A DNA stretch of 43,221 nt, taken from positions 1 to 43,221 of the forward strand of contig JAGHHZ010000022.1 in NCBI GenBank assembly GCA_017887425.1. The letters run 5' to 3'. The notes beneath the pieces are model-generated. The model was not told the origin of the DNA and searched no databases. It saw only the letters and a program-made list of their open reading frames with translations. Below are positions 3,737 through 14,883 of the stretch, in pieces (position 1 is the stretch's first letter; the number at the start of each line of letters is the position of its first letter). The DNA is from Bacilli bacterium (GTDB taxonomy: Bacteria > Bacillota_I > Bacilli_A > RF39 > UBA660). The translations under genes were made by a program, and so were the position numbers.

Positions 3737-4702
3737 ATGTTAGAAAAATTTAAACAAAATCAATCAATAGCTTATAAGATCATAAGTAATACTTTGAATA
3801 ATAAACATTATGCTCATGCTTATTTAATAGAAACTAACAATTGTACTGAAGGGTTTGATTTTGCTTTAACTTTTGCTAAACTATTGTTATGTCCAAATTA
3901 TAATAATGGACAAACAAACTGCCAAAATTGTATGCAATGTCAAATGATTGATGATAATAATTTTCCAGAATTAAAAATAATTTATCCTGATGGCAATTGG
4001 ATAAAAAAAGAACAATTAATAGAATTGCAAGAAGAGTTTAATAAAAAGTCAATTATTGGAAATAAAAAAGTTTATATAATTAATAAAGCTGATAAGTTAA
4101 ATGTTAATTCAGCAAATACAATTTTAAAATTTTTAGAGGAACCTCAAGAAGGAATAATTGCACTTTTAATTACTGCAAATCGTTATCAATTACTAGAAAC
4201 GATTATTTCCCGTTGTCAAATAATTTCTTTAAATGGACAAGCTAATTTGTTAAAAGAAAAAGATGCTTTTCAAAAAATAGGACTTTTAATAACTAATACT
4301 GATGAAGAATATCAAGAATTCATTAGTGATGAAACAAATTTTGAAAAAGTTAATGCCATATTAAAATTTATCAATTATTATGAAAAAAATCATAAAAAAG
4401 TGTTATTATATATGAATGATTATTGGTTCAATTATTTTTCTTTAAAAGAAAATATTTCCTGGGCAATATTAATTATTATTTATTTTTATAAAGATGCTTT
4501 AAATTATAAAATAAATTGTCCAGTTGAAATATTTAATGATTATTTAGAAGAAATAACTAAAATAGCTGAGTTAAATCAAATCGATATGTTAATAAATAAA
4601 ATTAAAGTATTAAATGAAAATCGTAATTATTTAGATAATAACGCTAATTTAAATTTATTAATGGATAAAATTATTATAGAAATGGAAGAAGGTGGAAAAT
4701 GA
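3737..4702 (+). CDS. holB: DNA polymerase III subunit delta prime
   Basis: A clamp-loader subunit of about 321 residues. It has the HAYLIE start of the AAA fold, four zinc-type cysteines in the CPN..CQNCMQC segment (near residues 53-67), KVYIINKADKLN in the Walker B position and the sensor segment ISRCQII. Walker A is degenerate, as expected for the non-hydrolysing delta prime subunit. The ATG at 3737 is preferred to the upstream in-frame GTG (3728) because AGGATGTGAG then serves as the ribosome binding site. The end overlaps ricT by 4 bases. Confidence 0.92.
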   Translation: MLEKFKQNQSIAYKIISNTLNNKHYAHAYLIETNNCTEGFDFALTFAKLLLCPNYNNGQTNCQNCMQCQMIDDNNFPELKIIYPDGNWIKKEQLIELQEEFNKKSIIGNKKVYIINKADKLNVNSANTILKFLEEPQEGIIALLITANRYQLLETIISRCQIISLNGQANLLKEKDAFQKIGLLITNTDEEYQEFISDETNFEKVNAILKFINYYEKNHKKVLLYMNDYWFNYFSLKENISWAILIIIYFYKDALNYKINCPVEIFNDYLEEITKIAELNQIDMLINKIKVLNENRNYLDNNANLNLLMDKIIIEMEEGGK

Positions 4703-10890: not shown

Positions 10891-10929
10891 GTGTGTGTGT
10901 AATTTTAAAAATAAATTGTTATGTATAAT
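10891..10929 (+). promoter_or_regulatory. (GT)5 tract and candidate promoter of the DGR target gene
   Basis: A (GT)5 run fills 10891-10900, and a perfect TATAAT -10 lies at 10924-10929. No good -35 is visible at 17 bases (the position falls at AATTTT). The target gene starts 93 bases downstream with ribosome binding site AAAGGAG. A dinucleotide repeat beside a promoter recurs in this element, at 13128. Confidence 0.4.
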
Positions 10930-11021: not shown

Positions 11022-12776
11022 ATGAAGAAAGGTTTTACGTTAATTGAATTATTAGCCGTAATTATTATACTAGCCATTATAGCATTAATCGCTACACCAA
11101 TCATATTAAATGTAGTTGAAGATGCTAGAATATCAGCAGGTAAATCAGAAGCCCAAATGATATATAGTGGAATAAATAATTATTGTGCATCATCAATGAT
11201 GGAAGAACAATTGAATGGAAAAGTTGATATATGTGCAGATGGGGTAACAACTGAAGAAGTATCGCAAATGGTTAATCTAGGAAATGCCACAGTTAATAAA
11301 GTAACATATAGCAATGGTAAAGTTACCGAGTTAGAAGTAGAAAGTAATAATCATACATTTAAACTATGTGGTGATGGAAGCTTTGTCATGGATGATGAAG
11401 AATGTGGAGTAACACCACCAGATGTTGGATTGGTAGGAGATGCCATAAGTGAGACAGTATTAGAAAAATATCCTTATTTAGCAACAACAGGAAATGGATG
11501 TACAACTTCTAATGAAAATAATTATAGTTATATGGGAGGATGTTATTTAAAAGGAAATCCAACTGATAATTATTTATGGTATTCAGGATTCTTATGGCGT
11601 ATTATGGGAATTAATGCTGATGGAAGTGTGAGATTAATAACGGATGAAAATGTTACAGGAATATCATATCACGAAAGCAGTTCAAATTGGGATGGAAGTC
11701 ATGCTAAAGATTGGTTAAATAATTATTTTTATCCAAGATTAAAAGGCAATGATATTATTGTAGAGCAAACATGGTGTAGTGAGACTACGACAAGTAGTTC
11801 AAGTGCAAGAACAAGTTGTAGCAATAATTTATCGACTGAAAAAGCTAAAGTGGGTTCAATATCATTAGATGAATATAATTTAGCTGGTGCTGGGAATTCA
11901 TATTTAAATATAGGTCAATATCAATGGACATTAACGCCATATAATGGTTCTAACGCTTGGAGCGTCAGCGACTGTGGCAATGCCTTCAACGACGGCGTCC
12001 ACGGCGCGTACGGCCTTCGTGCAGTTATAAATGTCAACTCTAATGTCACCATTACCGGAGGTAATGGTACTCTAGGGGAAACTTGGAGTAGTGAAGCTGG
12101 TCCATATATTTTAAACGAAGATAAGAGTATAGAAGTAACAGGAAAATTAAACGAAAAAGCAACAAGTGGAGAATATGTATTATATGCAGGCAAGAAATAT
12201 CGGATAGTCTATAAAGATAGTAATGGCAATACGAAATTAATATTAGATGGCTATTATGAAAAAAATGACAGTGTTTATGAAATGGAATATGGCGATAATA
12301 ACACCTTTTCAACAACAACAGGAATAGGGCAAAAATTAAATAGTGATGTATTAGAATGGTTAGTAGCAAGTAGTGATACTGAAAATAGAAATAAATTAGT
12401 AACAAATTATACTTGGTATCAAAATGAATTTGATGGTGGTGATAATTATACAATATCATTAGAAGAAACTAATCCAACAAGGAGTATCAATGCGACAGTA
12501 GGGTTAATAAGAGTAGGTGAGATGTTATCAAGTCAAAGCAGTAGTATATTAACAAAAGGATATACAACAACAAGTAGTTATAATAACGCTAATACTTATT
12601 GGACAATGACACCATCTAGTTCTAGTTCTGACGCTTGGTACGTCGGCAACGGTGGCGATTCCAACTGCAACGGCGACGTCAACCTCGCGTGCGGCCTTCG
12701 TGCAGTTATAGTTGTCAACTCTAATGTCACCATTACCGGAGGTAATGGTACTTGGTCGAGTCCATACGAAATATAA
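11022..12776 (+). CDS. DGR target protein with prepilin N-terminus and two variable repeats
   Basis: 584 residues. The N-terminus MKKGFTLIELLAVIIILA is a type III prepilin signal: cleavage after Gly4, Phe at +1, Glu at +5 and a hydrophobic helix to ~residue 27. Two ligand-binding-like modules follow (about 145-350 and 385-580). Each ends in a segment of the form AW..V...G.....V..A.GLRAVI.VNSNVTITGGNGT, resembling the C-type-lectin/FGE-like ends of known DGR targets. VR1 covers residues 309-334 and VR2 covers 535-561. The VR codons are GC-rich and unlike the AT-rich remainder. The likely role, inferred from the signal and the family, is a surface- or pilus-displayed binding protein whose two sites are diversified by the reverse transcriptase downstream. 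Its binding partner cannot be read from sequence, and no pilus assembly genes are in the window. Confidence 0.9.
   Translation: MKKGFTLIELLAVIIILAIIALIATPIILNVVEDARISAGKSEAQMIYSGINNYCASSMMEEQLNGKVDICADGVTTEEVSQMVNLGNATVNKVTYSNGKVTELEVESNNHTFKLCGDGSFVMDDEECGVTPPDVGLVGDAISETVLEKYPYLATTGNGCTTSNENNYSYMGGCYLKGNPTDNYLWYSGFLWRIMGINADGSVRLITDENVTGISYHESSSNWDGSHAKDWLNNYFYPRLKGNDIIVEQTWCSETTTSSSSARTSCSNNLSTEKAKVGSISLDEYNLAGAGNSYLNIGQYQWTLTPYNGSNAWSVSDCGNAFNDGVHGAYGLRAVINVNSNVTITGGNGTLGETWSSEAGPYILNEDKSIEVTGKLNEKATSGEYVLYAGKKYRIVYKDSNGNTKLILDGYYEKNDSVYEMEYGDNNTFSTTTGIGQKLNSDVLEWLVASSDTENRNKLVTNYTWYQNEFDGGDNYTISLEETNPTRSINATVGLIRVGEMLSSQSSSILTKGYTTTSSYNNANTYWTMTPSSSSSDAWYVGNGGDSNCNGDVNLACGLRAVIVVNSNVTITGGNGTWSSPYEI
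11946..12024 (+). repeat. DGR variable repeat 1 (VR1)
   Basis: Aligned without gaps to the TR at 12880-12958. By my count there are 15 base differences over 26 codons, 14 of them at TR adenines. The exception is codon 13 (TCC in the TR, GCC here). Changes are limited to positions 1 and 2 of AAY codons. The 3' end CGGCCTTCGTGCAG is identical to the TR and is the likely initiation-of-mutagenic-homology segment. Confidence 0.93.
12048..12068 (+). other. Hairpin/cruciform downstream of VR1
   Basis: ACCATTACC (12048-12056), loop GGA, GGTAATGGT (12060-12068): a perfect 9-bp inverted repeat starting 24 bases after the end of VR1. DGRs such as the Bordetella phage element need a hairpin just downstream of the VR for efficient retrohoming. 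The same element recurs after VR2 at the same distance. Confidence 0.82.
12624..12705 (+). repeat. DGR variable repeat 2 (VR2)
   Basis: A second VR in the same gene. Against the TR it has one extra codon inside the AAC run (five codons between TCC and GTC, against four). About 16 further substitutions all sit at TR adenines, apart from the first boundary base (A for G). The 61 bases beginning at the shared 3' end (12692-12752) match 12011-12071 after VR1 with two mismatches. Confidence 0.93.
12729..12749 (+). other. Hairpin/cruciform downstream of VR2
   Basis: The same perfect 9-bp stem and GGA loop as after VR1 (ACCATTACC / GGTAATGGT), again starting 24 bases after the end of the VR. It encodes ITGGNGT in the protein, so the same bases serve coding and probable target-site recognition. 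Confidence 0.82.
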
Positions 12777-12820: not shown

Positions 12821-12854
12821 ATCACACCTTGCCGATAGAGTGGCAAGGTGTGGT
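12821..12854 (+). other. Strong hairpin upstream of the TR
   Basis: CACACCTTGCC (12823-12833) pairs with GGCAAGGTGTG (12842-12852), an 11-bp perfect stem that a G-T and an A-T pair extend to 13, over an 8-base loop. No T-run follows, so it is not a standard terminator. It sits 25 bases before the TR and may cap, stabilise or process the TR RNA, or protect the target mRNA 3' end. Confidence 0.6.
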
Positions 12855-12879: not shown

Positions 12880-12958
12880 GGTTCTAACGCTTGGAACGTC
12901 AACAACAATGGCAATTCCAACAACAACAACGTCAACAACGCGAACGGCCTTCGTGCAG
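12880..12958 (+). repeat. DGR template repeat (TR)
   Basis: A non-coding adenine-rich template of 26 codon-equivalents. Thirteen are AAC or AAT, giving 26 mutable adenines, all at codon positions 1 and 2 in the frame of the VRs. Randomising the adenines of AAY gives NNY, which encodes 15 amino acids and never a stop. The 3' end GGCCTTCGTGCAG matches both VRs, then diverges (AT here, TT in the VRs). Order is target, TR, accessory genes, RT, all on one strand. Transcription is probably by read-through from the target gene, since I see no clear promoter between 12777 and 12880. Confidence 0.94.
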
Positions 12959-13069: not shown

Positions 13070-13110
13070 AAACAGTTTAGTAGAGAAATCGAAAAACTGT
13101 TTTTTCTTTT
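13070..13110 (+). terminator. Terminator of the target/TR transcript
   Basis: AAACAGTTT (13070-13078) pairs with AAACTGTTT (13094-13102) over a 15-base loop, followed by TTTCTTTT. It ends the TR RNA before a new promoter and so separates template synthesis from the RT operon. Confidence 0.75.
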
Positions 13111-13119
13111 GGAAAACTA

Positions 13120-13149
13120 TTGACAACGTGTGTGTGTGTGTGAGATAAT
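13120..13149 (+). promoter_or_regulatory. Promoter of the DGR accessory/RT operon with a (GT)7 spacer
   Basis: Consensus -35 TTGACA (13120-13125) and -10 GATAAT (13144-13149) are 18 bases apart. Of these, 13128-13141 is a perfect (GT)7 microsatellite. Gain or loss of one GT would set the spacer to 20 or 16 and should change promoter strength. This is a classic architecture for phase-variable promoters, but switching itself is not shown by one sequence. Confidence 0.75.
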
Positions 13150-13167: not shown

Positions 13168-13578
13168 GTGAGGTTAGTTGATATAAGAAATAAATTAAAA
13201 TTAAAACATAACGAAGCTATTATTTTTATGAAATATGGTAATTTTTATAGGGTATTTGATGAGGATACATATATTATAAGTGGTTTATTAGGTTATAAAA
13301 TATATGAAAATAAAGTAGGATTTCCAATTAGTGAATATAAAAAAGTAAGAAAAATATTAGATATGAATTATATTAGTTATATTTTTTATAACGATATTGA
13401 AGAAATAAAGGAAAATAATAATTATGAGTTATGTTTAGATTATTTTAAAAGGAAGTTTTATCAAAAGGAAATATTAAAAGTATTGGATAATTATAATGTA
13501 ATTGAGGAATTAGAGAAGATATTAAAAGTAATTAATTATAGTAAACTAGTTGAATTAAAGGATAAATATGAAAAATAA
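13168..13578 (+). CDS. MutS-domain-I-like DGR accessory protein (MSL type)
   Basis: 136 residues. Residues ~10-85 resemble the mismatch-binding domain I of MutS. HNEAIIFMKYGNFYRVFDED corresponds to the MutS segment with GDFYE..FFEDA, and KVGFPISEYKKVRKIL to its G-P-H/YxxY part. The MutS aromatic-containing GxFYE motif is altered here to GNFYR. MutS-like accessory genes have been reported in some DGR loci. The start is GTG at 13168 with AGGGTG 5 bases upstream; the nearby ATG at 13166 runs into TGA at once. Its stop overlaps the Avd start region, so translation is probably coupled. Biochemical role unknown. Confidence 0.75.
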   Translation: MRLVDIRNKLKLKHNEAIIFMKYGNFYRVFDEDTYIISGLLGYKIYENKVGFPISEYKKVRKILDMNYISYIFYNDIEEIKENNNYELCLDYFKRKFYQKEILKVLDNYNVIEELEKILKVINYSKLVELKDKYEK

Positions 13579-13916
13579 TGAATTATTAGTTATTACTAAT
13601 ATTAAGAAAACTATTTTATTTTTTTGATAATATATTGCTTAATTTTCCTAAAAAAGATTATATATTAAAAAATAAGATTGAGTTAGTTTTATATGATTTA
13701 TTAGAAAGTATTTATATGGCTAATTATTTAGCTAAAGATGAGCGAATAAATAAATTATATTTATGTTTAACTAAAATAAAAATGTTGGATTTTTACATTA
13801 ATATTAGTTTTAATAAGAAGGTTATAAGTTATAAAAAGTTTATTAAAATATGTGAATTTTTAAATAATATTGTTAGATTAATATATGGGTTTATTAAATA
13901 TGAAAAGAATCGGTAA
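13568..13916 (+). CDS. avd: Avd-like DGR accessory protein, interrupted by a T7 frameshift
   Basis: Avd is a small basic four-helix-bundle pentamer that binds the RT and the template RNA. The body (FPKKDYILKNKIELVLYDLL onward) is in the frame from 13635, where only a TTG start without a clear ribosome binding site is available. The expected N-terminus, MKNNELLVITNIKKTILFF, is read from the ATG at 13568 (overlapping the upstream stop) but in another frame, ending at TGA 13625-13627. Removing one T from the T7 run at 13619-13625 joins the two into a 115-residue Avd. So either the gene is broken, the run is a sequencing error, or a +1 frameshift at TTT-TGA or polymerase slippage produces the full protein. 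It overlaps the RT start. Confidence 0.7.
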
Positions 13917-14883
13917 TGTTTATAATAAATTGTGTGATTTGGATAAGATAATTAATGTTTATAAAAAAATAAAAAGTAATACTAAAAATAAAACAAAACT
14001 AGAAAAATTTGAAGATTATTATTGTATTAATTTAGTTAATATATATAATACTTTAAAAAATCACAATTACAAAATAGATAAATATAATTTATTTATAATT
14101 TATGAACCTAAAGAAAGATTGATTTTAAGTTTAAATTTAAAGGATAAAATAATTAATCATATGGTGGCTTATTTATTATTTGATATTTTAGAAAAGAGTT
14201 TAATTGATAGTAATGTAGCAGTTAGAGTTAATAAAGGAACTAGTTATGGAATTAAATTAATAAAAAAATATATTAATTGTTATAAGGATTATTATGTTTT
14301 AAAATGTGATATTAAAAAATATTTTTATAGTATTAATCATAAAAAGTTAAAAGATTTATTAAGTAAAAAAATAAAGGATAAGTTATTTTTAAATATAGTA
14401 TATAAAATAATTGATAGTACGAATGAAGAATATATATTTGAATATGCTAGTAAACATAATATCAATTATTTAAAACAAGGATATGGTTTAAGTATTGGTA
14501 ATATGACTAGTCAAATATTAGGAATATTTTATTTAAATGATTTAGATCATTATATTAAAGAAAATTTAAAAATAAAGCATTATATAAGATATATGGATGA
14601 TTTAGTATTATTTCATAGTAATAAATTATATTTAAAAGAATGTTTAAAGAAGATAATTATTTTTTTAAACAATTATGATTTAGAGTTAAACAATAAAACG
14701 GTAATAACTAAAAATAATCTATGTTTTTTAGGTTACCACTTTTATAATAAAAAAATAAAGATATTAAGTAAAAATAAAAGAAGAATATATAAGAAATTAA
14801 GAATATTAAAAAAATATAATCTTGAAAAATACAATAAAGTATTAAGTAGTTATTATGGTTATTTTAAAATTCAAAAATATTAA
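13900..14883 (+). CDS. DGR reverse transcriptase
   Basis: About 327 residues. The start MKRIGNVYNKLCD resembles other DGR RTs, so the ATG at 13900 is preferred to 13885. Motif 3 has KCDIKKYFYSI with catalytic Asp near 137. Motif 4 is IGNMTSQ (199-205), the small-residue/SQ form of DGR and related group-II-derived RTs. The active site is YMDD (231-234), followed by motif 6/7 residues in CFLGYHFY. It copies the TR RNA with adenine-directed errors and delivers cDNA to the VRs. It overlaps the Avd end by 17 bases with no visible ribosome binding site, so translation is likely coupled to Avd. No maturase, endonuclease or integrase domain is seen. Confidence 0.95.
   Translation: MKRIGNVYNKLCDLDKIINVYKKIKSNTKNKTKLEKFEDYYCINLVNIYNTLKNHNYKIDKYNLFIIYEPKERLILSLNLKDKIINHMVAYLLFDILEKSLIDSNVAVRVNKGTSYGIKLIKKYINCYKDYYVLKCDIKKYFYSINHKKLKDLLSKKIKDKLFLNIVYKIIDSTNEEYIFEYASKHNINYLKQGYGLSIGNMTSQILGIFYLNDLDHYIKENLKIKHYIRYMDDLVLFHSNKLYLKECLKKIIIFLNNYDLELNNKTVITKNNLCFLGYHFYNKKIKILSKNKRRIYKKLRILKKYNLEKYNKVLSSYYGYFKIQKY

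What the first reader, a model, noticed from the sequence alone, without database searches (positions are those of the whole stretch)
13120..13149. GT microsatellite between the -35 and -10 of the RT operon
TTGACA and GATAAT are separated by 18 bases, 14 of them (GT)7. Dinucleotide repeats in promoter spacers are known to cause phase variation because 2-base changes alter spacing. This could switch the mutagenic RT on and off, limiting the cost of hypermutation. A (GT)5 also sits beside the target-gene promoter at 10891.
Basis: partly seen in the sequence, partly recalled or inferred. Interest (0 to 1): 0.75.

Follow-up and report, generated by a model that had tools for sequence, protein, structure and literature searches.

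The report
Variable GT-repeat promoter driving retroelement operon
The promoter that drives a bacterial targeted-hypermutation machine (a diversity-generating retroelement) has a GT microsatellite as its spacer; related species keep the same promoter at the same place but with very different repeat numbers, so the machine may be turned up and down by repeat slippage, although switching within one species has not been shown.

Summary
In detail: TTGACA (13120-13125), an 18-base spacer made almost wholly of (GT)7G, and GATAAT (13144-13149) precede the MutS-like (MSL)-Avd-RT operon of a diversity-generating retroelement (DGR). In the 1.24-Mb genome the only two GT runs of 9 nt or more lie in this locus. 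Thirteen DGR loci in four lineages, plus two degraded remnants, have a GT tract at exactly this position. Units range from 4 to 11, giving spacers of 9, 10, 14, 15, 18, 20 (five species), 22 and 23 bp. The tract always ends in the TGn of an extended -10, and a terminator-like hairpin sits just upstream. In a scan of about 85,000 species genomes, every TTGACA-GT-KATAAT promoter with 8 or more units was this DGR operon. Two sister-species pairs differ in repeat number. I judge it a length-variable promoter, most likely a slippage switch. Points against or limiting this: no within-species or expression data; five species share n = 9; no intact element has a 16-18 bp spacer; the extended -10 may buffer spacing. 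The (GT)5 at 10891 is a different, fixed-length motif. In this window avd is frameshifted by a T7 run, so this copy may be inactive.

The parts
13120..13125 (+). -35 hexamer TTGACA, unchanged in all 13 DGR operon promoters; altered only in the two remnants (TTGGCA, TTGATA)
13128..13142 (+). (GT)7G microsatellite filling the promoter spacer; equals 8 units if the following GA is a mutated GT; 4-11 units in relatives
13141..13143 (+). TGn extended -10 element supplied by the end of the repeat in every lineage
13144..13149 (+). -10 hexamer GATAAT (an overlapping TAATAT 2 bp further is an alternative register)
13070..13110 (+). hairpin AAACAGTTT...AAACTGTTT plus T-rich run: likely terminator of the TR RNA, insulating the operon promoter; a hairpin is present at this place in the other lineages
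   Evidence: not called by the consensus scan, whose loop limit is 8
13168..13578 (+). MSL: MutS domain I-like protein, 136 aa, known kind of DGR accessory protein
   Evidence: (PF01624, E 7e-6); PMC10053308
13568..13916 (+). avd gene; frame broken by a T7 run at 13619-13625 (T6 in the sister species), leaving 93 aa from 13635 instead of about 115
   Evidence: (bAvd E 9e-9, below the curated cut-off)
13885..14883 (+). DGR reverse transcriptase, 332 aa, YMDD motif
   Evidence: (RVT_1 E 1.7e-17)
12880..12958 (+). template repeat (TR)
11946..12024 (+). variable repeat 1 (15 mismatches to TR over 70 nt, 14 of them at TR adenines)
12625..12705 (+). variable repeat 2
11022..12776 (+). target gene: type IV pilin-like N terminus, two DUF6273-type repeats carrying the VRs
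12823..12852 (+). perfect hairpin CACACCTTGCC...GGCAAGGTGTG between target gene and TR; also found after the stop codon of a remote target
10891..10900 (+). (GT)5: fixed-length motif, not in a promoter spacer; not part of the switch

Best explanation
The GT tract is the spacer of the promoter for the DGR protein operon (MSL, Avd, RT). Slippage of the repeat adds or removes 2 bp at a time, always leaving the TGn extended -10 intact but moving the -35 towards or away from the workable 16-18 bp distance. Expression of the mutagenic machinery is therefore set by repeat number: high near n = 8 (spacer 17-18 in all four lineages), low basal from the extended -10 at other lengths. The TR RNA, ended by its own terminator, would be made regardless. 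Most likely this is a contingency (phase-variation or rheostat) switch that keeps most cells weak or off. Shown: anatomy, position-specific conservation, and length differences between species. Inferred: effect on transcription, reversibility, and switching within populations.
For: (1) Tract present exactly between -35 and -10 in all nine operons of the genus and two remnants, with n = 4, 4+A+5, 7+GA, 9 (five species) and 10. (2) Same layout in L124 (RT about 54% identical, spacer 23), in two species of genus g141 (spacers 15 and 9) and in G205 (spacer 14). (3) Sister pairs differ: G000 18 vs G010 10 at 96% operon DNA identity; G270 15 vs G160 9 while the tract's flanks are near-identical. (4) GT runs of 12 nt or more in the 18 genus genomes occur only here and at one prophage-like site; in L124's genome it is the only run of 11 nt or more. 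(5) In GTDB r220, all TTGACA-GT-KATAAT hits with at least 8 units are this operon. (6) A hairpin with T-rich run directly upstream and a TGn end in every lineage. (7) The four most degraded elements have only 4-6 units. (8) A-specific VR/TR differences in n = 9 elements show the machinery has worked there.
Against: No two genomes of one species could be compared and no expression data exist. Five species diverged to about 81% operon DNA identity all have n = 9, which looks like stabilising selection rather than free switching. Genus genomes carry MutS and MutL, which should slow dinucleotide slippage. With an extended -10 the promoter may tolerate poor spacing. The -10 register is uncertain by 2 bp. 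None of the nine elements without a visible defect has a 16-18 bp spacer; the only 18-bp one (the window) has a broken avd frame.
Confidence: 0.58

Rival explanations
1. Fixed tuning, no switching. The GT spacer is kept at a long, weak length (n = 9, 20 bp) by stabilising selection to hold RT expression low; length changes between species are slow evolutionary tuning or decay, not reversible switching.
For: n = 9 in five species; all nine elements without a visible defect are off the 16-18 bp optimum; MMR genes present.
Against: A non-repetitive spacer would do the same without instability, yet a pure GT tract is kept in four lineages; sister pairs differ by 3-4 units.
Confidence: 0.25
2. The GT tract is a binding or structural element (Z-DNA prone, supercoiling sensitive, or an operator for a regulator, possibly MSL itself) and its length sets the number of sites or the local twist rather than -35/-10 spacing.
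For: Alternating purine-pyrimidine tract; MSL is a MutS domain I relative encoded first in the operon.
Against: Position is exactly between conserved -35 and -10 and ends in register with the extended -10; with 4 units little is left to bind.
Confidence: 0.1
3. Neutral microsatellite: chance expansion of the TRTGn -16 motif with no role of its length.
For: The repeat unit equals the -16 motif; dinucleotide tracts arise by slippage (established knowledge; sequence).
Against: Such tracts are almost absent elsewhere in these genomes; four lineages; long tracts in working elements, short ones in the most degraded (4-6 units).
Confidence: 0.04
4. The promoter is not the one used: the operon is co-transcribed with the TR RNA and the GT tract is just a leader sequence.
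For: No transcript map; the inferred leader is only about 11 nt with the ribosome site at its very start.
Against: A hairpin with T-rich run lies directly upstream in every lineage and the promoter hexamers are conserved.
Confidence: 0.03

Closest known systems
Promoter-spacer repeat phase variation (Neisseria porA poly-G, Haemophilus hifA/hifB TA repeat, Bordetella pertussis fimbriae, Mycoplasma hyorhinis vlp; reviewed in PMC3899988)
   Same: Simple repeat in the promoter region; in porA and hifA/hifB it lies between -35 and -10, so that slippage changes their spacing
   Different: Here the repeat unit is GT, it always supplies the extended -10, and it controls a reverse transcriptase mutator operon instead of a surface antigen; within-species variation not shown
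Diversity-generating retroelements (BPP-1 type; MSL-bearing systems with PF01624, PMC10053308)
   Same: TR, VRs, Avd, RT, A-specific mutation, hairpin near the target end, MSL accessory
   Different: Protein operon has its own promoter with a variable microsatellite; no such control of a DGR found in the searched literature

Membership tests
Promoter-spacer simple-repeat phase-variable locus | tandem repeat lying between -35 and -10 | tested here: met
Promoter-spacer simple-repeat phase-variable locus | repeat number differs between related genomes with flanks conserved | tested here: met
   between species only:
Promoter-spacer simple-repeat phase-variable locus | repeat number differs among cells or strains of one species | not testable with these tools
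   one genome per species held; no reads
Promoter-spacer simple-repeat phase-variable locus | expression changes with repeat number, reversibly | not testable with these tools
   needs reporter or RNA data
Diversity-generating retroelement | DGR-type reverse transcriptase | tested here: met
Diversity-generating retroelement | TR and VR that differ at TR adenines | tested here: met
Diversity-generating retroelement | Avd accessory protein | tested here: inconclusive
   bAvd match E 9e-9 but below the curated cut-off; in frame in most relatives, frameshifted in this window
MSL (MutS domain I-like DGR accessory) | PF01624 match next to DGR RT | tested here: met
   PDB-sequence match to MutS only weak (E about 0.6)

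The most novel reading that the evidence does not exclude
A two-tier evolvability device: GT slippage in one promoter gates the whole DGR protein machinery, which may serve the local target and also TR cassettes and targets elsewhere in the genome (seen in G011, G010 and G000), and the first gene of the operon, a MutS domain I-like protein, may feed back on repair of slippage at its own promoter.
Probability: 0.3. Interest if true: 0.78.

Novelty: new variant of a known kind. Interest (0 to 1): 0.62.

Why it matters
How bacteria limit the cost of running a DGR is little known. A heritable, reversible repeat switch on the RT operon would be an example of one mutation device gating another, and it can be tested directly by counting GT units in reads and by a small reporter series.

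Tried and rejected
Pattern scans of viral contigs for the same promoter: none. The RT search in viral contigs gave only distant RTs, at most 36% identical. The second DGR of G003 (L097) looked at first like a poly-T spacer, but TTGCAA-N17-TATAAT is an ordinary promoter. Absence of mismatch repair as a cause of repeat instability: rejected, MutS and MutL are present. The (GT)5 at 10891 as a second switch: rejected. A strict link 'broken element = short tract' was first suspected, then weakened: G000 and G003 have broken avd genes but 8 and 9 units, and G160 has a seemingly intact operon with 4. Counting by hand over 15 elements, one-sided Fisher about 0.05, not independent. Rfam on six loci: nothing.

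Full report
Observation. The window holds TTGACA at 13120, a spacer AC-(GT)7-G-A of 18 bases, and GATAAT at 13144. The promoter scan scores it 11 of 12 with TG before the second hexamer. Chance gives no GTGTGTGTGT in shuffles, and the whole 1.24-Mb genome has only two GT/AC runs of 9 nt or more, this one and the (GT)5 at 10891.

What surrounds it. The locus is a diversity-generating retroelement: a pilin-like target gene with two VRs, a hairpin, a TR whose copies differ mainly at adenines, then a hairpin with a T-rich run, the GT promoter, and an operon of MSL (MutS domain I, PF01624), Avd and RT. MSL is a known DGR accessory (PMC10053308). Because the hairpin sits between the TR and the promoter, the TR RNA and the protein operon are probably separate transcripts (inference). 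The operon's leader would be only about 11 nt, which is short.

Comparison within the genus. All nine operons in the genus carry TTGACAAC-(GT)n-GATAATATTA. n is 9 in five species and 10 in one; one is 4+A+5, the window is 7+GA, and its sister G010 is 4. Operon DNA identity between G000 and G010 is 96%, yet the spacer is 18 against 10. Two degraded remnants (G006, G007 contig 20) have n = 4 and mutated -35 boxes. The script sometimes picked the overlapping TAATAT as the -10; spacers quoted here for the genus use GATAAT, as.

Comparison beyond the genus. A scan of about 85,000 species genomes for TTGACA-GT-KATAAT gave 29 places; every one with 8 or more units is this DGR operon, including L124, whose RT is about 54% identical and whose spacer is 23. 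Following RT relatives in 386 genomes of the family added two species of genus g141 with spacers 15 and 9 and, by pattern, G205 with spacer 14. In the g141 pair the tract's flanks are near-identical apart from a 41-base gap upstream, whereas overall identity is about 86%. The RT tree needs one or two origins of the trait. Other DGR operons of the family lack the tract, and a second DGR in G003 has an ordinary 17-bp spacer.

Reading. Four points fit a slippage-set promoter: exact position, retention of hexamers while length varies in 2-bp steps, near absence of such tracts elsewhere in these genomes, and the tract ending in TGn of an extended -10 in every lineage. In each lineage n = 8 gives a 17-18 bp spacer (from the sequences, by arithmetic). 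Known cases of the same principle are porA and hifA/hifB (PMC3899988). No paper found in the held library joins DGRs with repeat-controlled promoters; the library lacks most subscription papers.

Limits. No within-species comparison was possible, so switching is inferred. Five species with n = 9 across about 81% DNA identity speak for selection on length. None of the nine elements without a visible defect has a 16-18 bp spacer; this fits a default-weak switch but equally a fixed weak promoter. The -10 could be TAATAT, 2 bp further, which would shift all assignments. The extended -10 may hold basal activity at any length.

The window's own copy. avd here has T7 where the sister species has T6, which breaks the frame after 19 codons and leaves 93 aa instead of about 115. 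If real, this DGR is impaired despite its good spacer; if it is an assembly error it is not. G003 has a 31-bp deletion in avd, and G010 has lost its local TR. The claim that tract length tracks integrity is therefore only weakly supported.

The (GT)5 at 10891. The motif C-(GT)5-AATTTT(T/A) recurs with the same five units elsewhere in the genus, outside any promoter spacer. It is not a second switch.

Verdict. A real, conserved, length-variable promoter element on a DGR operon; phase variation is the best single reading but unproven.

Noticed in passing
window 13619-13625: T7 run breaks the avd frame (T6 in G010); a frameshift, a second slippage site or an assembly error
   Followed up: partly
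L092 (G003) avd: 31-bp deletion in avd relative to the near-identical G007 copy
   Followed up: yes
L088 (G010) 4400-4560: TR replaced by unrelated DNA while target VRs and the operon remain; no TR found elsewhere in this incomplete genome
   Followed up: partly
G011 contigs C1, C5, C15, C23, C30 (L273-L276, L272, L095): Several TR cassettes in one genome with one RT operon found for them; remote targets also in G010 (L271, L279) and G000 contig 12 (L270): probable action in trans
   Followed up: partly
L068 946-1570 (G003 contig 78): Prophage-like region with short leader ORFs holding an (AC)n tract of about 28 nt and a (TA)n tract upstream of tail-like proteins: another possible repeat-switched locus
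   Followed up: partly
window 10891; L072, L073, L074, L078, L084, L088: Fixed motif C-(GT)5-AATTTT(T/A), often near contig ends; function unknown
   Followed up: partly
L096, L102, L253, L258: Degraded elements in which DNA from within MSL to the RT C terminus is deleted; in G205 this gives an in-frame MSL-RT tail fusion
   Followed up: partly
L089, L091, L094: Avd is only 41-46% identical to the window's while RT is 75-82% identical: Avd seems to have been exchanged
   Followed up: no
G000 contig 19, 19728-19763 (L269): 36 bases of the terminator hairpin recur identically elsewhere in the genome
   Followed up: no
G000 contig 27, 628-1488 (L099): Second, distant DGR-like RT (42% identical) in the same genome
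   Followed up: no
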